Below, piece by piece: positions 11,894 through 50,735 of a stretch of DNA of 64,000 bases. Source of the stretch: Paracoccus sigandri (lineage in GTDB: Bacteria; Pseudomonadota; Alphaproteobacteria; Rhodobacterales; Rhodobacteraceae); assembly GCF_003709565.1 (NCBI RefSeq), contig NZ_QNRC01000008.1:62001-126000 (forward strand), in the 5' to 3' direction. The first letter of the stretch is position 1. Every line of letters starts with the position of its first letter. The notes beneath the pieces are model-generated. The model searched no databases, was not told the DNA's origin, and saw only the letters and a program-made list of their open reading frames with translations. The position numbers and the translations under genes are program-made.

Positions 11894-12075
11894 AGTTTTA
11901 ACGATGGGCGGAAACGTGCCGAAATGCTAGTTTCCATCTCGTAAAGACGACTCTCCGTCCTTCGTCGAACAATGGTCATGGCGACTGCTTCTGGCAGGGG
12001 AGTCTTCGGGTCGGTTATGGCCCGGAGGCATGGGGAGGAGCCGACGGTATTGTAGGTTTGTTGATCGGGTGGGTT

Positions 12076-31013: not shown

Positions 31014-34000
31014 ATGACTGTCGACAAGAATTCCGTGGCGATCCCCGAAGGCGCGATTGCGATCACCGGCATGGCGGCCCATTTGCCCGGCGCGCCGGAC
31101 GTGGCCACCTACTGGACCAACCTGCGCGACGGGATCGAATCGATCCGCAAGCTGTCGGTCGAGGAATTGCTGGCCAATGGCGAAAGCCCGGCGCGGATCC
31201 GCCAGCCGAACTACGTCCCCGCCGCCTCGGTGCTGGAGGGGTTCGAGCGTTTCGATCCCGAATTCTTCGGCCTCTCGCTGAAAGAGGCCGCGATCATGGA
31301 CCCCCAGCACCGGCAATTCCTGGAATGCGCCTGGGAGGCGCTGGAGGATGCCGGTCATGTGCCGGAAAACTTCGGCGGCCCCATCGGGGTTTTCGCCGGC
31401 TGCGGCATGGGCAGCTATTTCTATTTCAACATCTGCTCGAATCCCGACCTGGTGCGCAATACCGGCATGTTCCTGCTGCGCCATACCGGCAACGACAAGG
31501 ATTTCCTGTCCACCCGCGTCAGCCATATCTTCGATCTGAAAGGCCCCAGCCTGTCGATCCAGACGGCCTGTTCGACCTCGCTGGTCGCCGTGCATCAGGC
31601 CAGCCAGTCGCTTCTGAACGGCGAATGCGACATGGCGCTGGCCGGGGGCGTGACCATCGAGCTGCCCCATGCCCGCGGCTATCTGTTCGAGGAGGGCGAG
31701 ATCCTGTCGCCCGACGGTCATTGCCACGCCTTCGATCACCGCGCGCAGGGCACGGTCTTCGGCTCGGGCGCGGGCTGCGTGGTGCTGCGCCGGCTGGAGG
31801 ATGCGATCGCGGACGGCGATCATGTCTGGGCGGTGCTGCGCGGCACGGCGGTCAACAATGACGGCGCGGCCAAGGCGGGCTATCTGGCGCCTTCCGTCGA
31901 GGGGCAGGCGAAGGCGGTGGCCGAGGCGCATGGCGTCGCGGGCGTTTCCGCCGACACCATCGGCTATGTCGAATGCCACGGCACCGGCACCTATCTGGGC
32001 GACCCGATCGAGGTCGCGGCGCTGACCCAGGCCTTCAACGAGACCACGCAAGAGACCGGCTTCTGCGGCATCGGCAGCGTCAAGACCAATATCGGCCATA
32101 CCGACACGGCGGCGGGCGTGGCCAGCCTGATCAAGGTCAGCATGGCGCTGCATCACGGCCAGATCCCGCCCTCGCTGGGATATGAGGCGCCGAACCCGGC
32201 CATCGATTTCGACGGCTCGCCCTTCCGCGTCAACGACCGGCTGAGCGATTTCCCCCGCCTGAAGGGCGCGCCGCGCCGGGCCGGGGTCAACAGCCTGGGC
32301 GTCGGCGGCACCAATGCCCATGCCGTGGTCGAGGAAGCGCCCGAGCGCGCCGCGTCGCAGGAAAGCGACTGGCCGTTCCAGCTTCTGGTCCTGTCGGCGC
32401 GCAACAAACCGGCGCTGGACGAGGCCAGCCGCAACCTGGCCGCCCATCTGCGCGCCCATCCCGAACAGCCGCTGGCCGACGTGGCCTGGACGCTGAAACA
32501 GGGCCGCCGCGCCTTCGAGCATCGCCGCGTGCTGGTCGCGACCAGCCACGAGGACGCCGCCGCCAAGCTGGAGGCGGGCGACCGTTTCAGCATCTTCACC
32601 CATCAGGCCCTGCCCGAGCGCCCGGAACTGGTCTTCATGTTCCCCGGTGGCGGCGCGCAATATGCCGGCATGGCCCGCGATCTCTACGAGACCGAGCCGG
32701 TCTTCCGCGAATGGATGGACAAGGGGCTGGACCACCTGGCGCCCAGGCTGGACTATGACCTGCGCGCGCTGTGGCTGCCCGAAGCGGGGGCCGAGGGCGA
32801 GGCGGCCGAGCGGTTGAAGCGCCCCTCGGTGCAATTGCCGCTGATCATGATCACCGAATATGCGCTGGCGCAGCTGTGGATCAGCTGGGGCGCGCAGCCC
32901 GCCGCGCTGATCGGCCATTCGATGGGCGAGAATACCGCCGCCTGCCTGGCCGGGGTGATCGGCTTCGAGGATTGCATCGGGCTGGTGCATCTGCGCGGCC
33001 AGTTGATGGACACCATCGCGCCGGGGGGGATGCTGTCGGTGCCGCTCTCGGCGGAGGCGCTGCAGGCCTATTGGGCCGACGACCTGGACATGGCCTCGGT
33101 CAATGCGCCCGATCTCTGCGTGGTGTCCGGTCCGCAATCGGCGCTGGACGCGCTGCAGGCCCGGCTGGCTGCCGATGAGATCGAGGCGCAGCGCATCCAG
33201 ATCGACATCGCCGCCCATAGCCGGATGCTGGAGCCGATCCTGTCGCGTTTCGGCGACTATCTGCGCGGCATCACGCTGAATGCGCCGCGCCTGCCGGTGA
33301 TCTCGAACCGGACCGGCCAGCCGCTGACCACCGATCAGGCGACCAGCCCCGATTACTGGGTCGCGCATCTGCGCAATTCGGTCATGTTCGCCGACGGCAT
33401 CGCCCATCTGGCGCAGCATAAATGCCGGGTCTATCTGGAAGTCGGGCCGGGCCGGGCGCTGGCCTCGCTGGCGCAGGCGAACGGGGTTCCGGCCAACCAG
33501 GTGCTGGCAAGTTTGCGCCATCCCGACCATGACGTGCCCGACGACGAATGGTTCATCGCCACGCTGGGGCGGCTCTGGGCGCTTGGCGCCGACGTGGACT
33601 GGACCCCGATCTGGGGCGAGGCGCGGCGCAACCGCGTGCCGCTGCCGACCTATCCCTTCCAGCGCCAGAGCTATTTCATCGAGCCGGGCCGTGCCGTCGC
33701 GCAGCCCGAGGAACAGCTGATCGAGCGCGTCGAGGGCGTCGAGAACTGGGGCTGGCAGCCGCATTGGCGCCCCCGCGCCGCGGATGCTGAGGTCGAGGCC
33801 GACGAACTGGACCGGGCCGAGCCGCGCACATGGCTGGTCTTCGCCGACGAGGCCGGGCTGGCCGCCCGCGCCATCGCCCGGCTGCGCGGCGCCGGCCATC
33901 GCGTGATCGAGGTGCGGGCGGGCGACATCTTCGCGAAGACCGGCGAGGACAGCTTCACCATCTCGCCCGAGCGCGGGCGCGAGGATTACGACCGGCTGAT

Positions 34001-37000
34001 TCATGAGCTGGTGGCAAGCGGGCTGGCCCCGCAGCGGATCGCGCATTTCTGGCTGGTCACGGCGGGCGAGACCTTCCGCCCCGGCTCCAGCTTCTTCCAC
34101 CGCAACCAGGAGCAGGGCTTCTACAGCCTGATGTTCCTGGCCCAGGCCATGGCCGAGGAAAACCTGCCGCGCCCGATCCATCTGCTGGCCCTGACCAACG
34201 GCGCCGCGCAGACCCGCGACGAGGCGCTGCCCTATCCCGAGAAGGCCACCGTGGCCGGCCCGCTGCGGGTGATGCCGCGCGAATTGCCCGGCGTGACCTG
34301 CGCCAGCCTGGACCTGACCCTGCCCGAAGGCCGCCGCGTTGATGCCGCCTGGGAGGCGCTGGCCGACCGCGTGATCGAGGAAATGCTGGCCCATCCCGCC
34401 AATCTCTCGGCCGCGCTGCGCGGGGATCGCCGCTATGAGCTGGGCTGGCGGCAATTGCCGCTGGAAACCGCGGAACCGGCGCTGCCGCAGGGGGCGGTCT
34501 GCCTGCTGACCGGCGGTTTCGGCGGCATCGGGTTGACCGTGGGCGAACGCCTGGCCCGCGATCTGGGCGCGAAGCTGGTACTGGTCGGCCGTCGCGCCTT
34601 GCCGGATCCGTCGCAATGGGACGCCCTGCTGCGCAATGCCGCCCCGAATGACGCGACTGCCGCGCGGATCCGCGGCGTGCGGCGGCTGGAGGCGGCGGGG
34701 GCCGAGGTGCTGTGCCTGACCGCCGATGTCTGCAACCTGCAGGACATGAGCGCCGCCCGCGACCGGGCGATCGCGCGTTTCGGCCGCATCGACGCGGTGA
34801 TCCATGCGGCCGGCGTGGTCGATGACGCGCCGATCCTGGCCAAGACCCCGGCCAGCGTGGAAAACGTCTTCGCCCCCAAGGTCCACGGCACCGAAGTGCT
34901 GGACGAGGTCTTCCCCGACGGCTCGGTCGGGCGGATCGTGGTGTTCAGCTCGACCTCGACCGCGATCGCGCCCGCCGGGCAGATCGACTATGTCGCGGCC
35001 AATGAATTCCTGAACGCCTGGGCCCGGTCGCGCGCGGGCGGCAAGACGCAGGTCACGGCGGTGAACTGGGGCATCTGGGCCGAGGTCGGCATGGCCGCCG
35101 AGGCCTTCGCCACGCCCGCCCCCGCCCCCGTCACCGATGTCGACGCTCCCCTGCTGGACAAGGCGACATTCGATGCCGAGGGCAACCGGGTCTTCACCAC
35201 CGGCCTGACCACGCGGCGCTGGATCCTGGACGGGCACCGCACCAAGGACGGGCAGGCGCTGATCCCCGGCACCGGCTATCTGGACGTGATCGCGCAGGCC
35301 CTGCGCGCCCATGGCGAGACCGGCCCCTTCGAGATCCGCGACCTGTTCTTCTTCCGCCCGCTGGCCGTCGATGACGATGCCGCGCGCGAGATGCGCCTGT
35401 CGCTGGCCCGCAATGACGAGGGTTACGGCGTCCAGATCCGCAGCGACGCGGTCGCGGATGGCCGCAAGGGATACGAGCTGAACGCGCAGGCCCAGATCGG
35501 CTTCGACGTTCCCGCGGCGGATGCGATCGACCTTGCAGCTATTTCAGACCGTTGCGGTGATAATGTCGAAACCGATCCGGGTGGGCTGCGGAGCCCGCAG
35601 GAACAGCATCTGAATTTCGGCCCCCGCTGGCGGGTGCTGCGCCGCCGCGCCTATGGCAGGGGCGAGGGGCTGGCGGAACTGGCGCTGCCCGACGCCTTCC
35701 GCGCGGAACCGGCGCAGGGCTGGCCGATCCATCCGGCGCTGATGGACCTGGCGACGGGCTGGGCGATGGGGCTGATCGAGGGCTATGCGCCCGATCATCT
35801 CTGGGTGCCGGTCAGCTATGGCTCGGTCCGGGTCCATGCGCCGCTGGCGGGCGAGATCCGCAGCTGGGTGCGCAATGCGGGCGACAACCGCGCCGACAAT
35901 CCCTTCGCGCGCTTCGACGTGACGCTGAGTGATCCCGACGGCCGCGTGCTGATCGAGATTTCCGGCTTTACCATCCATCGCCTTGATGGCGCTTTGGATT
36001 TTGCCGCCGCCTCGGGCAGGCGCGATGTGATCTTCCCCGATGCGAAGCCCGAGAACCGCAAGCTGTCCCCGGCCGAGGAGCGGCTGCAGCACAACCTGTC
36101 GCAGGGCATCCGCCCCGAGGAGGGCGCCGAGGGTTTCCTGCGCGCGCTGGCCACGGGCAGTTCGCAGGTCGCGGTCAGTTCCATGCCGCTGCCGAAGCTG
36201 ATCGAGCAGGCCGGGCAGGGCAGCGAGGAGGTCGAGGAACGCCAGGGCTTCGAGCGCCCGCAGCTGGACAGCGACTATGTCGAGCCGCGGAACGGGATCG
36301 AGCGCACGCTGGTCGGATTCTGGCAGGAATTGCTGGGCGTCGGGCAGGTCGGGGTCGAGGACAGCTTCTTCGACCTGGGCGGCCATTCGCTGATCGCCGT
36401 GCGGCTGTTCGCGATGATCCGCAAGACCTATTCGGTGGATTTCCCGATCTCGGTCCTGTTCGAGGCGCCGACCATCGCCGCCTGCGCCGCGCTGATCGAG
36501 GACCGCATCGGCCCGCAGGAGGGCGAGGGCGCCGAGGCGCCGAAGCCCAGGGCCCCGGCGCGCCGCTTCACCCATCTGGTGCCGATGCACCAGGGCGAGG
36601 GCGGGCCGCGCCGGCCCTTCTTCCTGGTCGCCGGCATGTTCGGCAACGTGCTGAACCTGCGCCACCTGGCGCAGCTTCTGGGTGGCGACAGGCCCTTTTA
36701 CGGGATGCAGGCGCGCGGGCTGTTCGGCGAGGACCAGCCGCATGACAATTTCGTCGATGCGGCAAAGGATTACATCGCCGAGTTGAAGCAGGTTCAGCCG
36801 CATGGTCCCTATCTGCTGGGTGGTTTCTCGGGCGGCGGGCTGATCGCCTGGGAAATGGCCCGCCAGCTGGAGGCCGAGGGCGAGGAGGTGGCGCTGACCG
36901 TGCTGCTGGACACGCCGCTGCCGATGCGTCCGGCGCTGACCAGACAGGACAAGGCGCTGATCAAGCTGGCCGAACTGCGCCGCAAGGGTCCCGGCTATCT

Positions 37001-37415
37001 GCGCGAATGGATGCAGGCGCGGGCCGACTGGAAGCGCCAGCAGCGCGAACGCGCCGGCGCCGCGCCGGAATCCGCCGGCCAGTTCCACAACACCGCCATC
37101 GAGGCCGCCTTCCGCGCCGCCCTGCCGGGCTATGACATGCAGAAACGCGACGGCCGCGTGGTGCTGTTCCGGCCGCCGCTGGACCTGCACTGGAAGGTCT
37201 CGGGCGGGCGCTGGGTCAGCGCGGCGAAGGAATATGTCTATCCCGACAACGACCTGACCCGCTTCGCCCCCGCGCTGCAGGTGATCGAGGTGCCGGGGGA
37301 TCACGACAGCATGGTGCTGGAGCCCAATGTCCGGGTGATGGCCGCCCGGATGCGCGAGGTGATCACCGAGGCCGAAACCGGGCTGGACAGGCCCCTGGCG
37401 CAGGCGGCGGAGTAG
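31014..37415 (+). CDS. Type I polyketide synthase, KS-AT-KR-DH-ACP-TE
   Basis: A 2133-residue single-module PKS. KS about 12-445 with Cys186 (TACSTS), His322 (HGTGT) and His362 (NIGH). AT about 540-870 with Ser636 in GHSMGE and the specificity segment IAAHS, unlike the usual HAFH (malonyl) or YASH (methylmalonyl). KR about 1160-1345 with TGGFGGIGL and Tyr1326 (DYVAAN). DH about 1395-1650 with His1408 and Asp1578 (HPALMD). ACP with Ser1792 (LGGHSL); TE about 1860-2110 with Ser1939 (GFSGGG) and His2097 (GDHDSM). All active sites are intact; there is no enoyl reductase. The order KR before DH is the reverse of the common one. It could extend, reduce, dehydrate and release one chain. First gene of the biosynthetic cluster, 4 bp before the next start. 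Confidence 0.93.
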   Translation: MTVDKNSVAIPEGAIAITGMAAHLPGAPDVATYWTNLRDGIESIRKLSVEELLANGESPARIRQPNYVPAASVLEGFERFDPEFFGLSLKEAAIMDPQHRQFLECAWEALEDAGHVPENFGGPIGVFAGCGMGSYFYFNICSNPDLVRNTGMFLLRHTGNDKDFLSTRVSHIFDLKGPSLSIQTACSTSLVAVHQASQSLLNGECDMALAGGVTIELPHARGYLFEEGEILSPDGHCHAFDHRAQGTVFGSGAGCVVLRRLEDAIADGDHVWAVLRGTAVNNDGAAKAGYLAPSVEGQAKAVAEAHGVAGVSADTIGYVECHGTGTYLGDPIEVAALTQAFNETTQETGFCGIGSVKTNIGHTDTAAGVASLIKVSMALHHGQIPPSLGYEAPNPAIDFDGSPFRVNDRLSDFPRLKGAPRRAGVNSLGVGGTNAHAVVEEAPERAASQESDWPFQLLVLSARNKPALDEASRNLAAHLRAHPEQPLADVAWTLKQGRRAFEHRRVLVATSHEDAAAKLEAGDRFSIFTHQALPERPELVFMFPGGGAQYAGMARDLYETEPVFREWMDKGLDHLAPRLDYDLRALWLPEAGAEGEAAERLKRPSVQLPLIMITEYALAQLWISWGAQPAALIGHSMGENTAACLAGVIGFEDCIGLVHLRGQLMDTIAPGGMLSVPLSAEALQAYWADDLDMASVNAPDLCVVSGPQSALDALQARLAADEIEAQRIQIDIAAHSRMLEPILSRFGDYLRGITLNAPRLPVISNRTGQPLTTDQATSPDYWVAHLRNSVMFADGIAHLAQHKCRVYLEVGPGRALASLAQANGVPANQVLASLRHPDHDVPDDEWFIATLGRLWALGADVDWTPIWGEARRNRVPLPTYPFQRQSYFIEPGRAVAQPEEQLIERVEGVENWGWQPHWRPRAADAEVEADELDRAEPRTWLVFADEAGLAARAIARLRGAGHRVIEVRAGDIFAKTGEDSFTISPERGREDYDRLIHELVASGLAPQRIAHFWLVTAGETFRPGSSFFHRNQEQGFYSLMFLAQAMAEENLPRPIHLLALTNGAAQTRDEALPYPEKATVAGPLRVMPRELPGVTCASLDLTLPEGRRVDAAWEALADRVIEEMLAHPANLSAALRGDRRYELGWRQLPLETAEPALPQGAVCLLTGGFGGIGLTVGERLARDLGAKLVLVGRRALPDPSQWDALLRNAAPNDATAARIRGVRRLEAAGAEVLCLTADVCNLQDMSAARDRAIARFGRIDAVIHAAGVVDDAPILAKTPASVENVFAPKVHGTEVLDEVFPDGSVGRIVVFSSTSTAIAPAGQIDYVAANEFLNAWARSRAGGKTQVTAVNWGIWAEVGMAAEAFATPAPAPVTDVDAPLLDKATFDAEGNRVFTTGLTTRRWILDGHRTKDGQALIPGTGYLDVIAQALRAHGETGPFEIRDLFFFRPLAVDDDAAREMRLSLARNDEGYGVQIRSDAVADGRKGYELNAQAQIGFDVPAADAIDLAAISDRCGDNVETDPGGLRSPQEQHLNFGPRWRVLRRRAYGRGEGLAELALPDAFRAEPAQGWPIHPALMDLATGWAMGLIEGYAPDHLWVPVSYGSVRVHAPLAGEIRSWVRNAGDNRADNPFARFDVTLSDPDGRVLIEISGFTIHRLDGALDFAAASGRRDVIFPDAKPENRKLSPAEERLQHNLSQGIRPEEGAEGFLRALATGSSQVAVSSMPLPKLIEQAGQGSEEVEERQGFERPQLDSDYVEPRNGIERTLVGFWQELLGVGQVGVEDSFFDLGGHSLIAVRLFAMIRKTYSVDFPISVLFEAPTIAACAALIEDRIGPQEGEGAEAPKPRAPARRFTHLVPMHQGEGGPRRPFFLVAGMFGNVLNLRHLAQLLGGDRPFYGMQARGLFGEDQPHDNFVDAAKDYIAELKQVQPHGPYLLGGFSGGGLIAWEMARQLEAEGEEVALTVLLDTPLPMRPALTRQDKALIKLAELRRKGPGYLREWMQARADWKRQQRERAGAAPESAGQFHNTAIEAAFRAALPGYDMQKRDGRVVLFRPPLDLHWKVSGGRWVSAAKEYVYPDNDLTRFAPALQVIEVPGDHDSMVLEPNVRVMAARMREVITEAETGLDRPLAQAAE

Positions 37416-37419: not shown

Positions 37420-38415
37420 ATGGCGACGGTTCTGACGGTCATCCTCAACTGGCGCACGCCCGACATGACGCTGCGCTCGGCCGAGGCGGCGGTCGCGGCG
37501 ATGGAGGGCATCGAGGGCGCGATCACCATCGTCGACAATGACAGCGGCGACGGCTCCGAGGAGAAGCTGCGTGCGGCGGTGGCCGATCGAGGCTGGGACC
37601 GGGTGCGGGTGATCCAGTCGGGCCATAATGGCGGCTTCGGGGCGGGCAACAATGCCGGCATCCGCGCCGGCCTGCCCGGCGGCGCCCGGCCGGATTTCGT
37701 CTATCTGCTGAATTCGGACGCCTTTCCCGCCCCCGATGCGATCCGCATCCTGCTGGGCCATCTGCAGGCCGATCCGCGCCTGGGCATGGCCGGCAGCTTC
37801 ATCCATGGCGAGGCGGGCGATCCGCATGTGACCTGCTTCCGCTTCCCCTCGGTCGCCTCGGAACTGGAGGGCAGCGCCCAGCTGGGACCGATCACGCGGG
37901 CCTTGCGCGGCCATGTCGTCCCGCAGCCGATCCCGGCCGCGCCTGCGCGCATGGACTGGGTCGCCGGCGCCAGCCTGATGATGCGGCAGGACATGCTGGA
38001 CCGCATCGGCTTGTTCGACGAGGGTTATTTCCTCTATTTCGAGGAAACCGATCTCTGCCTGCGCGCCGCGCGCGCGGGCTGGCAGGTGCTTTACGTCCCC
38101 GAAAGCCGCGTGGCCCATATCGGCTCGGTCTCGACGGGGATGAAGGGATGGGGGCGGACGCCCTCTTACTGGTTCGACAGCCGCTGGCGGTATTTCCGCA
38201 AGAATCACGGATTGGCCTCCGCGATCGCGGCAACGGTGGCGCAGACCATCGGGCTGTCGATCAACCGGCTTCGTGCCGCCATCGGGAACGCGCCCCGCAA
38301 CGGGCCGCGCAGGCACATGCGTGACCTGCTGGCCCATGACATCCGCGCGCTGGTCCGGGGCATCGACCCGGCGCCGGCGCGCCTTGCAAAACCCGTCACC
38401 GAGAGGACGACATGA
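37420..38415 (+). CDS. Family 2 glycosyltransferase, rhamnosyltransferase-like
   Basis: A 331-residue GT-A enzyme. Nucleotide-sugar motifs: VILNWRTPDMTLRS at the N-terminus, IVDNDSGDGSEE, NGGFGAGNNAGIR, metal-binding LLNSDAFP, then WVAGASLMMRQDMLDRIGLFDEGYFLYFEETDLCLRAARAGW, the acceptor/catalytic ED region typical of WcaA/rhamnosyltransferase-like GT2 enzymes. No membrane helix. It sits between the PKS and NRPS genes, and its stop overlaps the NRPS ATG by 4 bp, so sugar transfer is probably part of the same pathway. Donor sugar unknown. Confidence 0.9.
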   Translation: MATVLTVILNWRTPDMTLRSAEAAVAAMEGIEGAITIVDNDSGDGSEEKLRAAVADRGWDRVRVIQSGHNGGFGAGNNAGIRAGLPGGARPDFVYLLNSDAFPAPDAIRILLGHLQADPRLGMAGSFIHGEAGDPHVTCFRFPSVASELEGSAQLGPITRALRGHVVPQPIPAAPARMDWVAGASLMMRQDMLDRIGLFDEGYFLYFEETDLCLRAARAGWQVLYVPESRVAHIGSVSTGMKGWGRTPSYWFDSRWRYFRKNHGLASAIAATVAQTIGLSINRLRAAIGNAPRNGPRRHMRDLLAHDIRALVRGIDPAPARLAKPVTERTT

Positions 38416-41400
38416 CCCTTTCCGCCCTGTTCATCGGCAATGAATCCCTGCTGATCCAATGTGCGGGGCAATGGCGCGACCGAGGCCACGCCATCGCCGC
38501 GATCCTGACCCGCGATCCCGACATCACGGCCTGGGCCGAAGGGCAGGGCATCGCCGTCCTGCCGCAGCCCCAGACCCGCGATCCGGGCGATCTGGCCTAT
38601 GACTGGCTGTTCAGCGTCGCCAACCTGTCGCTGGTCCCCGAGGCGCTGCTGAGCCGCGCCGCGAAGGGCGCGATCAACTTCCATGACGGCCCGCTGCCGC
38701 GCCGGGCAGGGCTGAACACCCCGGCCTGGGCGATCCTTCAGGGCGACGGGCGGCACGGGATCACCTGGCACCTGATGGAAGGCGGGGTGGACGAGGGCGA
38801 CATCCTGGAACAGCGCCTGTTCGACCTGGCCACGGACGAGACGACGCTGACCCTGAACACCCGCTGTTTCGAGGCCGCCATCGACAGCTTTGCCGCGGTG
38901 ATCGGGCAGGTCGAGACGGGCTTGCAGCGCAAGCCGCAGGACCTGTCGCTGCGCGGCTATCATGCCCGCGCCGACCGTCCCGCCGCAGCGGCGCGGCTGG
39001 ACTTCACCGGCTCGCGCGAGGTTGCTTCGCGGCTGATCCGCGGGCTGGATCACGGCAGCTATCCGAACCCGCTGGCCCTGGCGAAATTCGAGGTCGAGGG
39101 CCGGGTGATCGCCCTGCGCGGCGTCGAGCCGGCCGAGGGCTACGGCGCGCCGGGCACGGTGCTGGCCGCTTGCCGCCAGGGCGCGACCGTGATGTTCGCC
39201 GACGGCGCGCTGCGCCTGACCGGGCTGGAGCCGCTGGACGGCGGCGAATTCGACCCGGCCGCGCTTCAGGGCAAGCTGCTCGCCTCGCCCGATGCGGCGG
39301 CGGCGCAGGCGCTGACCCAGGCCGTCGCATCCGTGGCGCCCGGTGAAGGTTACTGGCGCAAGGCGCTGAAATCATTTGCAGCCGCCAGCCTACCCCTGGC
39401 CAACCATGCCGAGGGCAAGGGCGACTGGCAAGCCCTGCCGGTGCCGGGCGAGGCCGGCGATCTTCTGGCCGCGACCGCCCTGCTGGCCAGCACGCTGGCG
39501 GGCGGCGAGGCCGTCGATCTGGCGCTGCATGATCCCGCCGCGCCGCGTGCGCCGGGCTATCTGTCCGACTGGGTGCCACTTGACGCCCGGATCGACCCGC
39601 AGGCCGATGCCGCGGACCTGCGCCGCCAGATGGCCGAACGGCTGGAGCGCGCCCGCAAGCATCCCGCCTTCGCGCTGGACCTGCCCCTGCGCGACCCGGC
39701 CATCGACCGCCCCGCGCTGCCGCAGATCGCCGTCGCGGCGGCGGGCGACGCCCCGGTCGCGGGCAGCATCGTCACCCTGGCCCCGGAAAGCGGACGGCTG
39801 CATTACGACGCCTCGCGGCTGGATGCGGGCTCGGCCGGGCTGCTGGCGGCGCGGCTGGCGCATCTGGCGGCGGCCATCGCCAAGGGCGGGCCGATCGCCG
39901 ACATCCCGCCGATGCCGGAGGCCGAGCGCGACCTGGTGGTCAACGGCTGGAACCGCAGCGAGACCGATTTCCCCGACATCTGCATCCATCAGGCCTTCGA
40001 AGCCCAGGTCGCCCGCACCCCCGGCGCCGTCGCCCTGACGGTCGAGGATCGCCACCTGACCTATACTGACCTGAACGCGCGGGCGAACCGCGCCGCCCAT
40101 GTGCTGCGCGCGATGGGGGTGGGGCCGGGCACGCTGGTCGGCATCCATACCGGCCGCAGCGAGCATCTGCTGATCGGCACCCTGGCGATCATGAAGGCGG
40201 GCGGCGCCTATGTGCCGCTGGACCCGGCCTATCCGGCCGACCGCATCGCGCTCTATATCGAGGACAGCGCCTGCCCGGTGATCGTCACCGAAAGCGCGCT
40301 GTCGCAGGGCCTGCCCACGCATGGCGCGCAGCTGCTGGTGCTGGACCAGGACGCGCGGCTGGCGGACGCGCCCGAGGGCAATCCCGACAGCGGCGTGACC
40401 ACCGCGGACCTGGCTTACCTGATCTATACTTCGGGCTCGACCGGGCGGCCCAAGGGCGTGATGCTGGAACACCGCAACGTCGCCAATTTCTTCACCGGCA
40501 TGGACGACCGCATCCAGCACGATCCGGCCGGGGTCTGGCTGGCGGTGACCTCGCTTTCCTTCGACATCTCGGTGCTGGAGCTGTTCTGGACGCTCGCGCG
40601 CGGCTTCCGGCTGGTGCTGATGGGCGATGCGGAACGGGCGCTGGTCTCGGGCGGGGCGGCGGTCAGCGACAAGCCGATGGATTTCAGCCTGTTCTACTGG
40701 GGCAATGACGACGGCGTCGGGCGCGAGAAATACCAGCTGCTGCTGGAGGGGGCGAAATTCGCCGACGAACACGGCTTCTGCGCCGTCTGGACGCCCGAGC
40801 GGCATTTCCACGCCTTCGGCGGTCCTTACCCGAACCCCTCGGTCACCGGCGCGGCGGTGGCGGCGGTCACGAAGAACCTGGAGGTGCGGGCAGGGTCCTG
40901 CGTCGCGCCGCTGCACCACCCGATCCGCATCGCCGAGGAATGGGCGGTGATCGACAACCTGACCAACGGCCGCACCGGGCTTGCCATCGCCTCGGGCTGG
41001 CATCCCGAGGATTTCGTGCTGCGCCCCGAGAACTCGCCCCCCGCGAACAAGCCGGCGATGTACAAGGACATCGACATCCTGCGCCGCTTGTGGCGGGGCG
41101 AGAAGGTGGCCTTCCCGATGGCCGGCGGCAAGATGGTCGATGTGCTGACCCAGCCGCGCCCGGTCTCGGAGGAGCTGAACATCTGGGTGACGACCGCCGG
41201 CAACCCGGCGACCTGGCGCGAGGCCGGCGAGATGGGCGCCCATGTGCTGACCCATCTTCTGGGCCAGTCCATCGACGAGGTCGGCGAGAAGATCCGCATC
41301 TATCACCAGGCGCTGCGCGACAGCGGCCGCGACCCGGCGAAATACCGCGTCACGCTGATGCTGCACAGCTATCTGGCCGATGACCGGGAAACCGCGCGGG

Positions 41401-42980
41401 AGGTGGCGCGCGGGCCGATGAAGTCCTACCTGGCCTCGGCCGCGGCGCTGGTGAAGCAATATGCCTGGGCCTTCCCGGCCTTCAAGAAGCCGCAGGGCGT
41501 CTCCAACCCGATGGAGATCGACCTGGGCAGCCTGTCCGAGGAGGAGAACGAGGCGATCCTGGAATTCGCCTTCCACCGCTATTTCGAGGATTCCGGCCTC
41601 TTCGGCACCGTCGAGGAAATGCTGCCAAGGGTCGAGCATCTGAAGGAAATCGGCGTGACCGAAATCGCCGCGCTGATCGATTACGGCATCCCGCGCGAGC
41701 AGGTTCTGGAGGGGCTGCGTCCCCTGGCCGAACTCCTGGCCCGCGCCAATGCCGGCACGGCCCCGGCGCATGACGATTTCTCGATCGCGGCGCAGATCCG
41801 CCGCCATGACGTGACGCATCTGCAATGCACGCCCTCGATGGCGCGGATGATCGCGATGAACGACGACGCGCGGGCGGCCCTGGCCAAGGTCCGGCACCTG
41901 ATGATCGGCGGCGAGGCGCTGTCGGGTTCGCTGGTGGCCGACCTGAACAGGGCCAGCCCGGCCGGGATCGAGAACATGTATGGCCCGACCGAGACGACCA
42001 TCTGGTCCACCACCGCGACGGCGGATGCCTCGGAACCCGTGGCCAGCATCGGCACGCCCATCGCCAATACCCAGGTCTATGTGCTGGATGAGCAGATGCG
42101 GCCGCTGCCGGTCGGCGCGCCGGGCGAATTGTGGATCGGCGGGGCGGGCGTCGCGCGCGGCTATTGGCAGCGCGACGACCTGACCGAGGAGCGTTTCAAG
42201 CCGAACCCGTTCCATCCGGGCCGGATGTACCGGACCGGCGACCTGGTCCGCTGGAAGGCGGATGGGCGGCTGGAATTCCTGGGCCGCGCCGACCATCAGG
42301 TGAAGATGCGCGGCTACCGGATCGAGCTGGGCGAGATCGAGGCCGTGGCCGAGGGTTTCGCCGGGGTGCGCCAGGCCGTGGTCGTGGCGCGCGAGGACCG
42401 GCCCGGCGACATGCGGCTGGTGGCCTATGTCACCGGCGACAGCTGGCTGGCGACGGGCGCGCTGACCGATCATCTGGCGACGGTGCTGCCGCCGCATATG
42501 GTGCCCGCGCATGTGGTCAAGCTGCCGGAATTCCCGCTGACGCCGAACCGCAAGGTGAACCGCAAGGCGCTGCCCGCCCCGGTCGAGGCGAGTGCCGCGC
42601 GCAGCGATGTATTCGTGGCGCCGAAGATTGGCGTGCAGGCGACCATCGCGCAGGTCTGGTCGCGCATCCTCAACCGCGAGCAGATCGGCGCGCGCGACAA
42701 TTTCTTCGCCCTCGGCGGCCATTCGCTGCTGGCGGTGCAGGCGCATCGCGAGATCCGGCAGGCGCTTGGCGGGGGCGTGAAGCTGTCGATCACCGACATC
42801 TTCCAGTTCCCCACGCTGGAGGCGCTGGCCGGCCATCTGGACGGGGCGGATGCGGCGAATTCGGCCGCCGAGCCGCAATCGGCCGAGGCCGAGGCGGCCG
42901 GCGCCGCCGAGCGGGCCGCCGCGCGCTCGGACGCCATGTCGCGCCGCCGCGCCCTGCGGGCCGGTCGCGGCCAGGGCTGA
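38412..42980 (+). CDS. NRPS initiation-type protein: formyltransferase, C remnant, A domain with inserted luciferase-like monooxygenase, carrier protein
   Basis: 1522 residues, MupA/Atu3671-like. (1) Formyltransferase fold, about 1-290, with Asn89, His91 and Asp127, the N-x-H...D spacing of E. coli ArnA (102/104/140). (2) About 310-500 resembles only the C-terminal lobe of a condensation domain (YWRKALKSF to MPEAERDLVVNGWN), without HHxxxDG. (3) Adenylation domain with A1 (LTYTDLN, from 549), A2, A3 (YTSGSTGRPKG) and A4 (FDISVLELF, Asp718), interrupted at about 756-1114 by an FMN-dependent luciferase-like monooxygenase, resuming with A5 (NMYGPTE, from 1188) to A10 (NRKVNR). Specificity positions read D-I-L-Q-M-G-M-I-W-K, close to the glycine code DILQLGLIWK. 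(4) Carrier domain with Ser1438 (LGGHSL). No active condensation or thioesterase domain. Predicted role: load glycine, modify it and hand it to another module. Confidence 0.92.
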   Translation: MTLSALFIGNESLLIQCAGQWRDRGHAIAAILTRDPDITAWAEGQGIAVLPQPQTRDPGDLAYDWLFSVANLSLVPEALLSRAAKGAINFHDGPLPRRAGLNTPAWAILQGDGRHGITWHLMEGGVDEGDILEQRLFDLATDETTLTLNTRCFEAAIDSFAAVIGQVETGLQRKPQDLSLRGYHARADRPAAAARLDFTGSREVASRLIRGLDHGSYPNPLALAKFEVEGRVIALRGVEPAEGYGAPGTVLAACRQGATVMFADGALRLTGLEPLDGGEFDPAALQGKLLASPDAAAAQALTQAVASVAPGEGYWRKALKSFAAASLPLANHAEGKGDWQALPVPGEAGDLLAATALLASTLAGGEAVDLALHDPAAPRAPGYLSDWVPLDARIDPQADAADLRRQMAERLERARKHPAFALDLPLRDPAIDRPALPQIAVAAAGDAPVAGSIVTLAPESGRLHYDASRLDAGSAGLLAARLAHLAAAIAKGGPIADIPPMPEAERDLVVNGWNRSETDFPDICIHQAFEAQVARTPGAVALTVEDRHLTYTDLNARANRAAHVLRAMGVGPGTLVGIHTGRSEHLLIGTLAIMKAGGAYVPLDPAYPADRIALYIEDSACPVIVTESALSQGLPTHGAQLLVLDQDARLADAPEGNPDSGVTTADLAYLIYTSGSTGRPKGVMLEHRNVANFFTGMDDRIQHDPAGVWLAVTSLSFDISVLELFWTLARGFRLVLMGDAERALVSGGAAVSDKPMDFSLFYWGNDDGVGREKYQLLLEGAKFADEHGFCAVWTPERHFHAFGGPYPNPSVTGAAVAAVTKNLEVRAGSCVAPLHHPIRIAEEWAVIDNLTNGRTGLAIASGWHPEDFVLRPENSPPANKPAMYKDIDILRRLWRGEKVAFPMAGGKMVDVLTQPRPVSEELNIWVTTAGNPATWREAGEMGAHVLTHLLGQSIDEVGEKIRIYHQALRDSGRDPAKYRVTLMLHSYLADDRETAREVARGPMKSYLASAAALVKQYAWAFPAFKKPQGVSNPMEIDLGSLSEEENEAILEFAFHRYFEDSGLFGTVEEMLPRVEHLKEIGVTEIAALIDYGIPREQVLEGLRPLAELLARANAGTAPAHDDFSIAAQIRRHDVTHLQCTPSMARMIAMNDDARAALAKVRHLMIGGEALSGSLVADLNRASPAGIENMYGPTETTIWSTTATADASEPVASIGTPIANTQVYVLDEQMRPLPVGAPGELWIGGAGVARGYWQRDDLTEERFKPNPFHPGRMYRTGDLVRWKADGRLEFLGRADHQVKMRGYRIELGEIEAVAEGFAGVRQAVVVAREDRPGDMRLVAYVTGDSWLATGALTDHLATVLPPHMVPAHVVKLPEFPLTPNRKVNRKALPAPVEASAARSDVFVAPKIGVQATIAQVWSRILNREQIGARDNFFALGGHSLLAVQAHREIRQALGGGVKLSITDIFQFPTLEALAGHLDGADAANSAAEPQSAEAEAAGAAERAAARSDAMSRRRALRAGRGQG

Positions 42981-42984
42981 GCGG

Positions 42985-43653
42985 ATGAGCGGATTGGGGC
43001 GGGTGATCTCGGGCCTGTTTCCCGGCGAGGTGGGCCATGCGGCGGTGGCCATCGGCACCGCCCCCGCGCCCCTGCCGGCCGAAGCGCCGGCCGTCGCCCG
43101 CGCCATTCCGCGCCGCGTGGCGGAATTCGCGGCCGGGCGCGCGGCCGCGCGTGCCGCCCTTGCGGCGGCGGGCCTGCCCCGCGCCGCCATCCCGATGGGC
43201 CAGGATCGCGCGCCGATCTGGCCCGAAGGCGCCACCGGCAGCATCACCCATAGCCGCGACTATGCGCTGGCCGTGGCCGCCCCGGCCGCGCGCTTCCGCG
43301 GCCTGGGGCTGGATGTCGAACCCGACCAGCCGCTGCCCCATGACGTGCTGGACGAGATCTGCGACAGCGACGAATGCGCCTGGATCGCCGGTCAGGTCCA
43401 GCCGCTGCGTTGGGCGCGGCTGATCTTCGTCGCGAAGGAGGCGGCCTATAAATGCCAGTATCCCGCCAGCAGGACGCTGTTCGGCTTCGAGGCGATGACC
43501 GTCCGCGTCGATCCCGGCAGCGGCACCCTGACCGCCCGCTTTCGCCGCGCCGTCCCCCCTTTCGAGAACGGGGCCGAATTGCCGGGCCGCTTCGCCTTCG
43601 CCGAGGGTCAGATGATCGCCGGTTTCATGCTGCCCGCCGCGCCGACGGGCTGA
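42985..43653 (+). CDS. 4'-phosphopantetheinyl transferase, EntD/Sfp type
   Basis: A 222-residue enzyme that attaches the phosphopantetheine arm of CoA to carrier-protein serines, here presumably Ser1792 of the PKS and Ser1438 of the NRPS. Motifs: basic CoA-binding segment RRVAEFAAGRAAARAAL, WPEGATGSITHSRDYALAVAA (SxTHS), metal site GLGLDVEPDQPL and FVAKEAAYKCQYP (KEAxYK). The ATG at 42985 begins 4 bp after the NRPS stop. Confidence 0.94.
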   Translation: MSGLGRVISGLFPGEVGHAAVAIGTAPAPLPAEAPAVARAIPRRVAEFAAGRAAARAALAAAGLPRAAIPMGQDRAPIWPEGATGSITHSRDYALAVAAPAARFRGLGLDVEPDQPLPHDVLDEICDSDECAWIAGQVQPLRWARLIFVAKEAAYKCQYPASRTLFGFEAMTVRVDPGSGTLTARFRRAVPPFENGAELPGRFAFAEGQMIAGFMLPAAPTG

Positions 43654-43742
43654 ACCGCCCGCCGCCTCTTGCGCCGGGAATTTGAAAAGACAGTATATTT
43701 CATGTGCCGCATTTGTTTGTGTCGAGGCAGGGAGGACCCGAG

Positions 43743-44714
43743 GTGAACCGCAGGCTGACCATGTTTTCCGGGATCGCCGCGCTGGGGCTGGCGGGGGTCG
43801 GGGCCGGGCTGCTGATCCGGCGGCGCCGGTCGGGCGGCGGCCCGCCGCCCCTGCCGCAGATGGCCGAGGCCGATTTCGCCGCCGCCTTCCCGCCCCTGTC
43901 GCCGCCCGAGGGGCCGCTGAACGTCTATCACCTGGGCCACAGCCTGGTCGGGCGGGAGATGCCCGCCATGCTGGCGCAGCTGGTCGCCGGGCATCGCCAT
44001 GCCAGCCAACTGGGCTGGGGGGCCTCGCTGCGCCAGCACTGGCTGGGCCGGGACGAGATCCCCGGCTATGACACCGAGAACGCCCATCCCGCCTTCGCCG
44101 ATGCGAAACAGGCGATCGGCGGGGGCGATCACGATGCGGTGGTGCTGACCGAGATGGTCGAGCTGAAAGATGCGATCAAGTGGCATTCCAGCAGCCATTA
44201 CCTGGCCGAATGGGCGCGGCTTGCCCGGCAGGGGCGGCCCGACCAGCGGCTCTATCTCTACGAGACCTGGCATCGGCTGGACGATCCCGCCGGCTGGCTG
44301 GAGCGGATCGACAGTGACGCCGGGGCGCTGTGGCGCGACGAGCTGCTGCGCCGCGCCATGAGCGACCCGGCGGTCGGCACCATCTATCGCATTCCCGGCG
44401 GCCCGGCCCTGGCCGCGGTGGTGCGCGCCGCCGAGGCCGGCGAGATCGCCGGGCTGGAGACACGCGAGGCGCTGTTCGCGCGAGCCGAGGATGGCAGCCA
44501 GGACATGATCCATGTCAACGACCTGGGCAGCTATGTGATCGCCCTGACCCATTACGCGGTCCTCTATCACCGAAGCCCCGAAGGACTGCCGCACCGGCTG
44601 CAGCGCGCCGACGGCTCGCCGGCCGAGGCCTTTTCGGACGAGGCCGCCCGCACCATCCAGCGCATCGTCTGGGAGGTGGTGCGCCACGATCCCTTCACCG
44701 GGGTCGGTGCATGA
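43743..44714 (+). CDS. SGNH-hydrolase-like protein with N-terminal membrane anchor
   Basis: A 323-residue protein not assignable to a named family. An N-terminal signal-anchor (MFSGIAALGLAGVGAGLLIRRRR) is followed by a proline-rich linker and a globular domain. NVYHLGHSLVG contains a candidate nucleophile Ser67, and DMIHVNDLG contains Asp254 and His257 in the D-x-x-H arrangement of SGNH esterases; the block II/III Gly and Asn are not obvious. A GTG start at 43743 is chosen because GGGAGG lies 7 bp upstream. Removal or transfer of an acyl group on the product is possible but unproven. The stop is 13 bp before the glycosidase-like gene. Confidence 0.7.
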   Translation: MNRRLTMFSGIAALGLAGVGAGLLIRRRRSGGGPPPLPQMAEADFAAAFPPLSPPEGPLNVYHLGHSLVGREMPAMLAQLVAGHRHASQLGWGASLRQHWLGRDEIPGYDTENAHPAFADAKQAIGGGDHDAVVLTEMVELKDAIKWHSSSHYLAEWARLARQGRPDQRLYLYETWHRLDDPAGWLERIDSDAGALWRDELLRRAMSDPAVGTIYRIPGGPALAAVVRAAEAGEIAGLETREALFARAEDGSQDMIHVNDLGSYVIALTHYAVLYHRSPEGLPHRLQRADGSPAEAFSDEAARTIQRIVWEVVRHDPFTGVGA

Positions 44715-44727
44715 GGGGGGTCGGGGC

Positions 44728-47124
44728 ATGAATCCCTTCGCGCTGATCGCCGACATCCTGCTGATCGGCTCGGGGCTGTTCGCGGACGACATGCCGAAAT
44801 GGCTGGAAACCGCCAGCGTCATGAGCGGCGAGAACATCCGGGTGCAGCTGGTCGCGGCGGATGGCGATCCGGCGGCGCTTGACCGGCTGCTGGCCAGCGG
44901 GCGCTTCGACCGCGCCGTCCTGGAACTGCCGCCAGGGGAGGGCGCGGCCGATGAGATCGCGCGGATCGGCGCGGTGGCGCTGGAGGCGGATCCGGCGTTC
45001 CGGCTCTATGTGATCGATCCCTTGCCCGCGCCGGATGCCGGCGATCCCGAGGGCTGGCAGGCGGCGCTGCAAGAGGCCGCCGCGGGCGGGCCCGAGGCGG
45101 AGGCCGCCGGGATGGAACCCGTCCCGATGGCGCAGGCCTTCGCGCTGCTGTCGCGGGAAATCGGCACGGGCGCGGTGCCGGGGATCCCGGCGCTGGCGGA
45201 TCTGCTGGACGGCGAGGGCGGGCTGAACGGGCGCGGGCGGTTCTTCGCGGCGATGGTCCTGCACGGCGTCCTGAACGGGACCGATCCGACCGGGCTGCCG
45301 GCCTGGCTGGGGCCGCAGCAGGGCGGCGCCGGGCAGGCGGAGGGCTTCACGCCGGACATGGCCGTGGCGCTGCAGCGGCTGGCCTGGCGCGGCCTGCGCG
45401 CGCCCGATCCCCAGCCGGTGGTGCCGGAGGCGGCGCCCGCCGCTGATGCCGTTGATGCCGAAGCGGCGCCGGTGCAGGCGGTCTCGGAGCTGGCCGGCGT
45501 CACCCGCCAGGGCATCGCCTTCAACCTGACCGCCATCAGCGACTGGTCGACCGAGCTTCCCTTCCTGGACCTGTTCAAGACCGCGCGCCCCTGGATCGGC
45601 CATCTGCCCGGCCAATGGGGCGGTTTCGAGGCCGACCAGCTGCGGGGCGAGGGCTGGCTGGACGACCATGGCTGGCCCAGGGCCGTCCCCCAGAGCGTCA
45701 CCGCCCTGTCCACGCTGATCCTGACCGACCTGCCGCCGCAGGCCGCCTCGGCCGCCGGGCGCTACGAGCTGCGCTACCAAGGCAGCGGCCGGATCGAGCT
45801 GGAGGGGCGGGCGCGGCGGGTCCATCACGAACCCGGCGTGATCTGGTTCAGCTTCACCCCCGGCGAGGGCGCGGTGCAGATCAACATCCTGCAGACCGAT
45901 CCCGAGGATCCGATCCGCGACATCTCGGTCATCCGCGAGGATCGCGTGGCCCTGGCCCGGCAGGGGGAAATCTTCAACCCGGATTTCCTGGCCCGGCTGC
46001 GGGGCGCCCAGGAATTGCGCTTCATGCCCTGGATGAACGCGAACACCACCACGCTTTCCGATCCCCGTGACCGCCCGCTTGTCACCGACGCGACCTGGGC
46101 CGGCCCCCATGGCGTGCCGGTCGAGGTGATGGTGGCGCTGGCCAATCAGACCAGCGCCGATCCCTGGTTCACCATTCCGCATCTGGCCAGCGACGAACTG
46201 GCGCGCGACTATGCGCGGATCGTGCGCAACGGGCTGGCCGCCGAGCGCCGCGCCATCGTCGAATTTTCCAACGAGGTGTGGAATTTCTCGTTCCCGCAAT
46301 CCGCCTGGGCCGACGAACAGGCGCGTGCGGTCTGGGGCGCGCGCGATGCCTGGGTGCAATACGGCGCCCATCGCGCTGCCCGCATCGCCGATATCTGGAC
46401 CGAGGAGTTCGGCACCGAGGCCAGGGATCGCCTGGTCCGCGTGATCGGCACCCATCCCGGCTGGCAGGGGCTGGAGGAGGACATCCTGAACGCCCCCGCC
46501 TGGCGCCGGGCCGATCCCCAGGGCTGGCGCGCGCCGCATGAATCCTTCGATGCCTATGCGATCACCGGCTATTTCGGCCCCGGCATGGACGATCCGGAAC
46601 GCGTGGCGATGTACAAGGGCTGGATGGCGGAAAGCCTGATCGCCGCCAGCGAGGAGGCCGCCGCGCGGGGGCTCAGCGGTCCGGCCGCCGCGCAGCATAT
46701 CCGCGACCACCGTTTTGATCGCGCCTTCGCCCCGGCGCTGGCCGAATTGCATGACGGTTCGGTCAGCGGCAGGCCCGAGGGCTCGGTCCGGGCGGTGGTC
46801 GAGGAGCTTTTCCCCTATCACAAGGCCGTTGCCGACCGCTACGGGCTGGAGCTGGTCATGTATGAGGGCGGCACCCATGTCGTCGGGCTGGGCGCCTCGA
46901 TGCAGGACGAGGAACTGACCGAATTCCTGATGGCGCTGAACTATGCGCCGGGGATCGAGGCGCTCTATGACGAGCTGATCGCGGGATGGCGCCGGGTCAG
47001 CGACAATCCCTTCAACGATTTCAACGCCATCGAACGGCCCAGCCGCTATGGCAGCTGGGGCACGCTGCGCTGGCTGGATGACGACAATCCGCGCTGGCGG
47101 GCCGTCGCGCAGGGCCGGGACTAG
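44728..47124 (+). CDS. Putative glycoside hydrolase (clan GH-A-like) with SGNH-like N-terminus
   Basis: A 798-residue protein. Residues 1-250 resemble a degenerate SGNH-like domain: ILLIGSGLFADDMPKWLETA lines up with YHLGHSLVGREMPAMLAQLV of the preceding gene but lacks the active-site Ser. An Ala/Pro/Glu-rich linker (about 225-255) leads to about 545 residues with glycosidase features: VEFSNEVWNFSF carries an Asn-Glu pair (Glu516, candidate acid/base) and VMYEGGTHV supplies Glu713, a candidate nucleophile, as in TIM-barrel retaining glycosidases. No signal peptide is evident, so it may act in the cytoplasm or need another route out. A role trimming or branching the cluster glycan is inference. 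ATG 44728 follows GAGGGGGG. Confidence 0.72.
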   Translation: MNPFALIADILLIGSGLFADDMPKWLETASVMSGENIRVQLVAADGDPAALDRLLASGRFDRAVLELPPGEGAADEIARIGAVALEADPAFRLYVIDPLPAPDAGDPEGWQAALQEAAAGGPEAEAAGMEPVPMAQAFALLSREIGTGAVPGIPALADLLDGEGGLNGRGRFFAAMVLHGVLNGTDPTGLPAWLGPQQGGAGQAEGFTPDMAVALQRLAWRGLRAPDPQPVVPEAAPAADAVDAEAAPVQAVSELAGVTRQGIAFNLTAISDWSTELPFLDLFKTARPWIGHLPGQWGGFEADQLRGEGWLDDHGWPRAVPQSVTALSTLILTDLPPQAASAAGRYELRYQGSGRIELEGRARRVHHEPGVIWFSFTPGEGAVQINILQTDPEDPIRDISVIREDRVALARQGEIFNPDFLARLRGAQELRFMPWMNANTTTLSDPRDRPLVTDATWAGPHGVPVEVMVALANQTSADPWFTIPHLASDELARDYARIVRNGLAAERRAIVEFSNEVWNFSFPQSAWADEQARAVWGARDAWVQYGAHRAARIADIWTEEFGTEARDRLVRVIGTHPGWQGLEEDILNAPAWRRADPQGWRAPHESFDAYAITGYFGPGMDDPERVAMYKGWMAESLIAASEEAAARGLSGPAAAQHIRDHRFDRAFAPALAELHDGSVSGRPEGSVRAVVEELFPYHKAVADRYGLELVMYEGGTHVVGLGASMQDEELTEFLMALNYAPGIEALYDELIAGWRRVSDNPFNDFNAIERPSRYGSWGTLRWLDDDNPRWRAVAQGRD

Positions 47125-50696: not shown

Positions 50697-50735
50697 CTTA
50701 TATAAATCAATGACTTGCTGGCCGAGGGCATATCG

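What the first reader, a model, noticed from the sequence alone, without database searches (positions are those of the whole stretch)
38412..42980. Glycine-type NRPS initiation module with formyltransferase front end and a monooxygenase spliced into the A domain
Domain order is formyltransferase - condensation remnant - A(N) - luciferase-like monooxygenase - A(C) - carrier. The formyltransferase keeps the N-H-D triad (Asn89, His91, Asp127) at ArnA-like spacing. Reading the ten A-domain code positions across the insertion gives DILQMGMIWK, close to the glycine code DILQLGLIWK. A glycine-loading A domain with an inserted monooxygenase is also known from the myxothiazol/melithiazol enzymes (MtaG, MelG), where glycine alpha-oxidation makes a terminal amide. 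There it ends a chain; here the module looks like an initiator with formylation capacity, as in LgrA. Combining the two suggests N-formyl and alpha- or N-oxidised glycine as a starter.
Basis: partly seen in the sequence, partly recalled or inferred. Interest (0 to 1): 0.8.

Follow-up and report, generated by a model that had tools for sequence, protein, structure and literature searches.

The report
Glycine-starter enzyme in polysaccharide gene cluster
A Paracoccus bacterium carries a large enzyme that seems to load glycine, cap it with a formyl group and oxidise it as the first building block for a partner enzyme; the pair is common in related bacteria, sits among sugar-coat genes, and may make an unknown decoration of the cell's polysaccharide coat.

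Summary
Window 38412-42980 (+) encodes one 1522-aa protein: formyltransferase (1-292), degenerate condensation C-lobe (293-520), A(N), luciferase-like monooxygenase (758-1108, between motifs A4 and A5; TIGR04020 470 bits, cut-off 244), A(C), carrier. The code is DILQMGMIWK; all 90 full-length sequences compared keep a glycine-type code. The gene belongs to a cassette (PKS KS-AT-KR-DH-ACP-TE; GT2 glycosyltransferase; this loading module; phosphopantetheinyl transferase): PKS in 78 and GT2 in 79 of 80 named loci, the rest cut by contig ends. The cassette sits among exopolysaccharide genes: 9 of 9 annotated plasmid loci opened, and a sugar-phosphate transferase within 30 kb in 33 of 38 Paracoccus genomes (about 4% expected per genome). 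So it most likely primes a polyketide with N-formyl-(alpha-hydroxy)glycine for a non-sugar part of a surface polysaccharide. The oxidation chemistry, release step and product are inferred. F-A(Gly)-PCP starters and A-nested monooxygenases are each known; their fusion, common in Rhodobacteraceae but named only automatically, is a new variant. No paper describing it was found in the open library searched.

The parts
38412..42980 (+). FT-(C remnant)-A(N)-MOx-A(C)-PCP loading module, 1522 aa
   Evidence: ORF; domains; 90 full-length sequences aligned
38412..39287 (+). Formyltransferase domain, aa 1-292 (Formyl_trans_N and Formyl_trans_C); N89, H91, D127
   Evidence: predicted structure vs ArnA Z 26.1
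39288..39971 (+). Degenerate condensation C-lobe and C-A linker, aa 293-520; no HHxxxDG
   Evidence: profile vs PDB E 1.9e-12; motif absent in 90 of 90; 33% mean pairwise identity, lowest of all domains
39972..40637 (+). A domain, N-terminal part, motifs to A4 (D718 I719 L722)
40683..41735 (+). Luciferase-like FMN monooxygenase, aa 758-1108, nested between A4 and A5
   Evidence: TIGR04020 470.3 bits; PuwE 6ket E 4.5e-98; 76% mean pairwise identity, highest of all domains, 120 of 351 columns invariant
41766..42581 (+). A domain, C-terminal part (Q1138 M1164 G1166 M1189 I1197 W1198 K1381)
42642..42839 (+). Peptidyl carrier domain, Ser1438
31014..37415 (+). Type I PKS, 2133 aa, KS-AT-KR-DH-ACP-TE; predicted acceptor of the starter
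   Evidence: catalytic residues kept in 83 of 83 full-length sequences, (KS Cys was part of the selection motif)
37420..38415 (+). GT2 glycosyltransferase between PKS and loading module; overlaps the module's start by 4 bases
   Evidence: 20 of 20 loci; 79 of 80 loci
42985..43653 (+). 4'-phosphopantetheinyl transferase (ORF called from 42850; the ATG at 42985 is the likelier start)
   Evidence: relative found in 69 of 80 loci
43704..44714 (+). Conserved unknown protein (336 aa), no Pfam match, no significant PDB match
   Evidence: relative in 34 of 80 loci
44707..47124 (+). Conserved unknown protein (805 aa), no Pfam or PDB match
   Evidence: relative in 25 of 80 loci
47134..47964 (+). GT2 glycosyltransferase
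48024..49232 (+). GT4 glycosyltransferase
49229..50566 (+). Polysaccharide flippase (Wzx type)
12058..12765 (+). Polyprenyl-phosphate sugar-1-phosphate transferase; possibly the same pathway, but unrelated genes lie between

Best explanation
It is the loading module of a two-protein NRPS-PKS assembly line tied to a surface polysaccharide. Inferred steps: the neighbouring phosphopantetheinyl transferase arms Ser1438; the split A domain activates glycine and loads it; the formyltransferase domain caps the amine with formyl from formyl-tetrahydrofolate; the nested monooxygenase, with FMNH2 and O2, hydroxylates the alpha carbon, giving N-formyl-alpha-hydroxyglycyl-S-PCP; the KS of the PKS takes this starter, adds a malonyl-type unit, and KR and DH process it; the TE releases or transfers the acyl group, which the glycosyltransferases and flippase build into an exopolysaccharide repeat or attach to it. 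Shown by sequence: domain content and order, glycine-type code, conserved catalytic residues, cassette conservation, polysaccharide context. Not shown: every reaction, the site of oxidation, the number of PKS cycles and the final product.
For: Domains and code. FT fold of ArnA type. No working C domain. MOx under the strongest constraint of all domains. PuwE, the closest solved relative of the MOx, is predicted by its authors to help make a 2-hydroxy acyl chain, i.e. to oxidise the alpha carbon (PMC4219810, passages). F-A(Gly)-PCP starters feeding a PKS are proposed for phthoxazolin and conglobatin (PMC5764310, PMC4504003, passages). The PKS has KS first and TE last and no loading module of its own. 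Cassette: PKS in 78 and GT2 in 79 of 80 named loci (one listed PKS hit discounted as a carrier-domain cross-match), 20 of 20 same-genus loci. Polysaccharide genes: 9 of 9 annotated plasmid loci opened; sugar transferase within 30 kb in 33 of 38 genomes; GT and WecG genes beside some named loci.
Against: No product is known and no reaction was measured. The AT motif (IAAHS) matches neither recalled textbook motif for malonyl or methylmalonyl, so the extender is open. The KR-DH order and the DH motif (one extra residue; D-L-A-T-G where DxxxQ is usual, recalled) are unusual, so dehydration may fail. In the window the sugar transferase is 26 kb away with ABC-transporter, helicase and thymidylate-kinase genes between. 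The 9 annotated loci are not independent (three are near-identical Paracoccus). In Aminobacter and Shinella the PKS is on the other strand with no GT2 gene listed between PKS and module. Wzy_C matches near three named loci are below Pfam's cut-off, and housekeeping genes lie beside the cassette too. Clustering does not prove attachment.
Confidence: 0.45

Rival explanations
1. Oxidative cleavage, MtaG-like: alpha-hydroxylation of N-formylglycyl-S-PCP makes an unstable carbinolamide that loses formamide and leaves glyoxylyl-S-PCP, so the PKS is primed with a C2 keto-acyl unit and the formyl group only prepares the nitrogen to leave.
For: MOx over the TIGR04020 cut-off and a glycine-type code; the terminal-amide reaction of MtaG/MelG is recalled, not read here.
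Against: No MtaG sequence was compared; formylation only to discard the nitrogen is costly; no candidate for a cleavage enzyme was recognised among the neighbouring genes, two of which have no known family.
Confidence: 0.2
2. N-oxidation: the MOx N-hydroxylates glycine and the FT formylates it, giving an N-formyl-N-hydroxyglycyl (hydroxamate) unit that binds metals.
Against: The precedent read here oxidises carbon; no siderophore or TonB gene appears among the window ORFs scanned (not exhaustive); the loci are polysaccharide loci.
Confidence: 0.1
3. A free diffusible metabolite (antibiotic or signal) that merely shares a mobile region with polysaccharide genes; the HlyD/RND pump at 50715-55175 would export it.
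For: RND pump adjacent; the cassette occurs on plasmids, and a Betaproteobacterial clade lies inside the Rhodobacteraceae in a midpoint-rooted tree.
Against: Polysaccharide genes accompany the cassette in several families and a GT2 gene is inside it in 79 of 80 loci. An HlyD relative was seen in 1 of 20 loci and 0 of 80, but most flanks end before its expected place, so this is weak.
Confidence: 0.2
4. An ordinary F-A(Gly)-PCP oxazole starter, as for oxazolomycin, conglobatin or phthoxazolin, with the MOx playing no part in the starter.
For: Same FT-A(Gly)-PCP logic feeding a PKS.
Against: The MOx is the most conserved domain; no cyclodehydratase-like gene among the window ORFs scanned.
Confidence: 0.05

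Closest known systems
F-A(Gly)-PCP loading modules OzmO, CongA, PtxE
   Same: Formyltransferase, glycine-type A domain and carrier start a chain handed to a PKS (PMC5764310, PMC4504003, passages).
   Different: Those are proposed to make an oxazole with a cyclodehydratase and no nested monooxygenase is mentioned in the passages; they belong to free antibiotics, not polysaccharide loci.
LgrA initiation module (linear gramicidin)
   Same: N-terminal formyltransferase acting on the carrier-bound amino acid (PMC8150014, passages); best overall PDB sequence match, mostly through the A and carrier domains.
   Different: LgrA loads valine and continues into NRPS elongation; it has no monooxygenase (recalled).
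MtaG / MelG (myxothiazol, melithiazol)
   Same: Glycine-type A domain split by a monooxygenase (recalled; nothing fetched or read).
   Different: Those end a chain and release an amide (recalled); this module starts a chain and carries a formyltransferase.
PuwE monooxygenase domain (PDB 6ket)
   Same: Closest solved structure to the MOx, E 4.5e-98; authors' prediction is oxidation at C2 of a carrier-bound acyl chain (PMC4219810, passages).
   Different: In PuwE the domain lies between a PKS and an NRPS module, not inside an A domain.
Acetobacteraceae type-1 PKS clusters (alpha group) with GT4, formyltransferase and capsular-protein genes
   Same: A PKS gene beside a glycosyltransferase and a capsule gene was noted there (PMC8776678, passages).
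   Different: The passages describe a separate formyltransferase gene and an aminotransferase, and no FT-A-MOx-A-PCP protein.

Membership tests
NRPS formylating initiation module (F-A-PCP) | N-terminal formyltransferase with Asn-His-Asp triad | tested here: met
   N89, H91, D127 in 21 of 21 and 56 of 56, N and H partly by selection; Formyl_trans_N in 56 of 56; ArnA fold Z 26.1
NRPS formylating initiation module (F-A-PCP) | A domain plus carrier with no active condensation domain upstream | tested here: met
   HHxxxDG in 0 of 90
NRPS formylating initiation module (F-A-PCP) | Formyl transfer to the carrier-bound amino acid | not testable with these tools
   needs biochemistry
Glycine-activating A domain | Glycine-type specificity code | tested here: met
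   DILQ-x-G-[M/L]-[I/V]-W-K in 90 of 90; the code table is recalled
TIGR04020 MupA/Atu3671 luciferase-like monooxygenase | Score over the curated cut-off across the domain | tested here: met
   470.3 vs 244.45 bits, positions 1-340 of 341
Interrupted A domain (A-MOx-A) | Monooxygenase nested between A-domain core motifs, with A motifs kept on both sides | tested here: met
   between A4 and A5; by simple patterns A3, A4, A5, A10 in 90 of 90, A7 in 89, a strict A8 pattern in 69, a strict A2/A3-region pattern in 42 (A3 was partly used for selection). A review gives A8-A9 as the usual nesting site (PMC8949500, passages)
MtaG/MelG amide-forming terminal module | Terminal module that acts on a growing chain (definition recalled) | tested here: not met
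   FT at the N-terminus, no active C domain, TE on the partner PKS
Oxazole starter system (OzmO/OzmP, CongA/CongE) | Partner ATP-dependent cyclodehydratase | tested here: inconclusive
   none recognised among the window ORFs scanned; rest of the genome not searched
Exopolysaccharide-locus gene set | Priming sugar transferase, glycosyltransferases and flippase nearby | tested here: met
   two GTs and a flippase within 8 kb in the window; sugar transferase within 30 kb in 33 of 38 genomes; 9 of 9 annotated plasmid loci opened have polysaccharide genes

The most novel reading that the evidence does not exclude
A widespread assembly line (Rhodobacteraceae, Hydrogenophaga, some Hyphomicrobiales) whose purpose is to make an N-formyl, alpha-oxidised glycine-primed polyketide acyl group that is built into or onto a surface polysaccharide: an NRPS-PKS decoration pathway for sugar coats, started by a formyltransferase-A-monooxygenase-A-carrier module.
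Probability: 0.4. Interest if true: 0.75.

Novelty: new variant of a known kind. Interest (0 to 1): 0.57.

Why it matters
If right, one of the commoner NRPS-PKS cassettes of Paracoccus and its relatives does not make a drug-like secreted peptide but a hidden non-sugar piece of a polysaccharide coat. That could explain why its product is unknown, give a marker for a new class of modified exopolysaccharides, and offer a single compact enzyme in which formylation, amino-acid activation and oxidation of one glycine can be studied together.

Tried and rejected
Condensation domain as active: rejected; no Pfam Condensation match in the window protein or in 56 of 56 members, and HHxxxDG in 0 of 90. 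Chance or frame artefact: rejected; of 20 same-genus proteins 5 are 84-86% and 15 are 50-67% identical over full length. Solanimycin synthetase SolG, the best NCBIfam score, was considered and dropped: 506 bits against a cut-off of 2200. The long minus-strand ORF 39390-43247 was taken as a high-G+C shadow and not followed. Single-sequence structure prediction gave a useless model, pLDDT 36, so it was repeated with an alignment. The VIA search tested mainly residues 1-292; no condensation structure is in its list, which proves nothing about the remnant. PDB searches of the two unknown proteins and the GT2 gave nothing usable. Paper searches for the combination: searches returned none; 31 (5 papers) and 49 (2) nothing on point from listing and abstracts, one of them opened (PMC4359443, passages); others (25 of 95 listed; 20 of 110 listed) were general papers from the listing, with PMC11253843, PMC8949500 and PMC8150014 looked at in passages. 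Only open-licence papers are held. No tree of the monooxygenase family beyond this cassette was built. Rows dropped: one search had 101 sources; 3 gave no NRPS frame with both search motifs, 4 were duplicates, 4 were short, leaving 90; for the PKS 89 found, 85 distinct, 83 full length. Selection motifs (NxHxGPLP, SGSTG, TACSxSL) make conservation of those letters partly circular, and the genome-contig scan used the patterns A[VI]NFHDGP and [DE]T[AT]LTLN.... Results against a clean picture: in the class draw 2 genomes have the FT without the monooxygenase and 3 the monooxygenase without the FT; one Paracoccus copy has stops inside and a few are truncated; two weaker plasmid FT hits opened lie in larger NRPS genes not named as this monooxygenase and without the cassette.
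Full report
OBSERVATION. The protein is formyltransferase 1-292, a degenerate condensation C-lobe 293-520, A(N) 521-742, luciferase-like monooxygenase 758-1108, A(C) 1119-1390 and carrier 1411-1476. The monooxygenase scores 470.3 bits against a TIGR04020 cut-off of 244.45 and is closest to PuwE, PDB 6ket (E 4.5e-98). It is nested between A motifs A4 and A5. A 56-row alignment gives a confident model of residues 1-520 (mean pLDDT 95); residues 3-291 match the ArnA transformylase domain (Z 26.1, rmsd 2.9, 280 aligned). The linker profile matches only the end of condensation domains and the C-A linker (McyB, E 1.9e-12), and HHxxxDG is missing in 90 of 90. The A-MOx-A part was not modelled.

THE CODE AND THE ACTIVE SITES. 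Aligned over the insertion, the code is DILQMGMIWK (GrsA positions recalled). Of 90 full-length distinct sequences, the window's included (101 sources; 3 without a frame, 4 duplicates and 4 short ones dropped), 58 read DILQMGMIWK and 18 DILQLGMIWK, and all keep D, I, L, Q, G, W and K at 235, 236, 239, 278, 301, 331 and 517. N89, H91, D127 and Ser1438 are conserved in 90 of 90, but N89 and H91 were in the selection motif. The monooxygenase is the most conserved part (76% mean pairwise identity, 120 of 351 columns invariant), the remnant the least (33%, 4 of 228).

THE PARTNERS. Two genes upstream, 31014-37415 encodes a PKS with KS-AT-KR-DH-ACP-TE. Its KS, AT, KR, DH, ACP and TE catalytic residues are kept in 83 of 83 full-length sequences (the KS Cys motif was used to select them). 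It has no loading module and the NRPS has no release domain, so the NRPS most likely loads the PKS (inference). A GT2 gene lies between them, overlapping the NRPS start by 4 bases, and a phosphopantetheinyl transferase follows. In 80 named loci the monooxygenase is covered in 76, the other 4 running off the contig; GT2 is found in 79 and the PKS in 78, the loci without them (L081, L099) beginning just upstream of the module. The script lists 79 PKS hits; the one in L099 (35% over 113 aa, inside the NRPS gene) I discount as a carrier cross-match. The transferase is found in 69. In 20 same-genus loci the order PKS-GT2-NRPS is kept in 20. NRPS and PKS distances correlate with r 0.94 over 79 loci, as for a unit inherited together, though shared ancestry alone also gives a high value. 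A short basic tail (RRA[LM]R or K for the first R) ends 77 of 90 NRPS proteins and could be a docking element; this is a guess.

DISTRIBUTION. Of 148 genomes searched, 42 of 91 same-genus genomes have the FT region at E<=1e-50 and none of the 57 from other genera of the class do; one further Paracoccus copy (G062) has stops inside, and a few of the 42 are on truncated frames. In the class-wide draw the FT is found at E<=1e-40 in 10 of 385 genomes and TIGR04020 over its cut-off in 11 of 385; 8 genomes have both, on one open frame in 7; 2 have only the FT and 3 only the monooxygenase. Eight Betaproteobacterial sequences (Hydrogenophaga and others) and one MAG labelled Verrucomicrobiales form one clade (support 1.0) inside the Rhodobacteraceae in a midpoint-rooted tree (supports 0.89 and 0.99 for the enclosing nodes), which suggests lateral transfer. 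Fifteen plasmid records carry the monooxygenase at 60-80% identity, and all 15 are in the list of FT hits; 11 of the 15 were opened.

THE SETTING. Window genes 47134-50566 are GT2, GT4 and a Wzx-type flippase. Of 14 plasmid stretches opened, 9 show the cassette with a gene table, and all 9 hold polysaccharide genes such as sugar transferase, CpsD/CapB kinase, WecB/TagA/CpsF, flippase, O-antigen ligase or EpsE; three had no gene table and two weaker hits were other NRPS genes. The 9 are not independent: three are near-identical Paracoccus. I gave 38 of the 42 Paracoccus genomes to a sugar-transferase search: it lies within 30 kb of the module in 33, within 10 kb in 25; about 4% and 1.3% per genome are expected if placed at random in 4.2 Mb. 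Of the 5 misses, 4 have no such gene on the module's contig and one (G069) is 141 kb away. In the window genome the distance is 26 kb with unrelated genes between. Twenty flanking ORFs from five named loci gave GT2, GT4 and WecG genes, sub-threshold Wzy_C matches in three loci, and also housekeeping genes.

HOW IT MOST LIKELY WORKS. Glycine is activated, loaded, N-formylated and alpha-hydroxylated, then extended by the PKS and released to or with the glycan. The formyl-glycine part follows the proposals for PtxE and CongA. The alpha-carbon oxidation follows PuwE, where the paper predicts a 2-hydroxyacyl product, and MtaG (recalled). Whether the nitrogen stays is open. A 2022 review says only three N-formylated nonribosomal peptides from F domains had been described, and mentions monooxygenases nested in A domains separately, usually between A8 and A9 (PMC8949500, passages).

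VERDICT. It is best called a new variant: two known kinds of NRPS part fused in one starter module, in a cassette tied to polysaccharide loci. I found no paper on the combination (open-licence library, listings capped).

Noticed in passing
window 43704-44714 and 44707-47124: Two conserved unknown proteins with no Pfam match and no significant PDB match have relatives near the cassette in 34 and 25 of 80 named loci.
   Followed up: partly
window 42927-42977 (C-terminal tail of the NRPS): A basic [RK]RA[LM]R tail ends 77 of 90 sequences although the rest of the tail is variable; possibly a docking peptide for the PKS.
   Followed up: partly
L136:14992-19583 (Paracoccus marcusii CP157 plasmid): The formyltransferase and the A-MOx part are annotated as two overlapping genes, unlike the other 8 annotated copies opened; a frameshift or a sequencing error.
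   Followed up: no
L112:16601-20974 and L068:18534-20978: Hydrogenophaga loci carry a further NRPS gene with AMP-binding, DIP2-like, carrier and condensation domains beside the cassette.
   Followed up: no
L130:152-1804 and L129:21989-22675: Ruegeria loci hold the exosortase XrtD and a VPLPA-CTERM protein close to the cassette, in keeping with an exopolysaccharide locus.
   Followed up: no
window 50715-55175: HlyD-type adaptor and AcrB-type RND pump just after the flippase; whether they belong to the cassette is not settled, as most fetched flanks end too early.
   Followed up: partly
G062:C11:57882-58952: A Paracoccus copy of the FT region with four stops inside, apparently a decayed cassette.
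   Followed up: no
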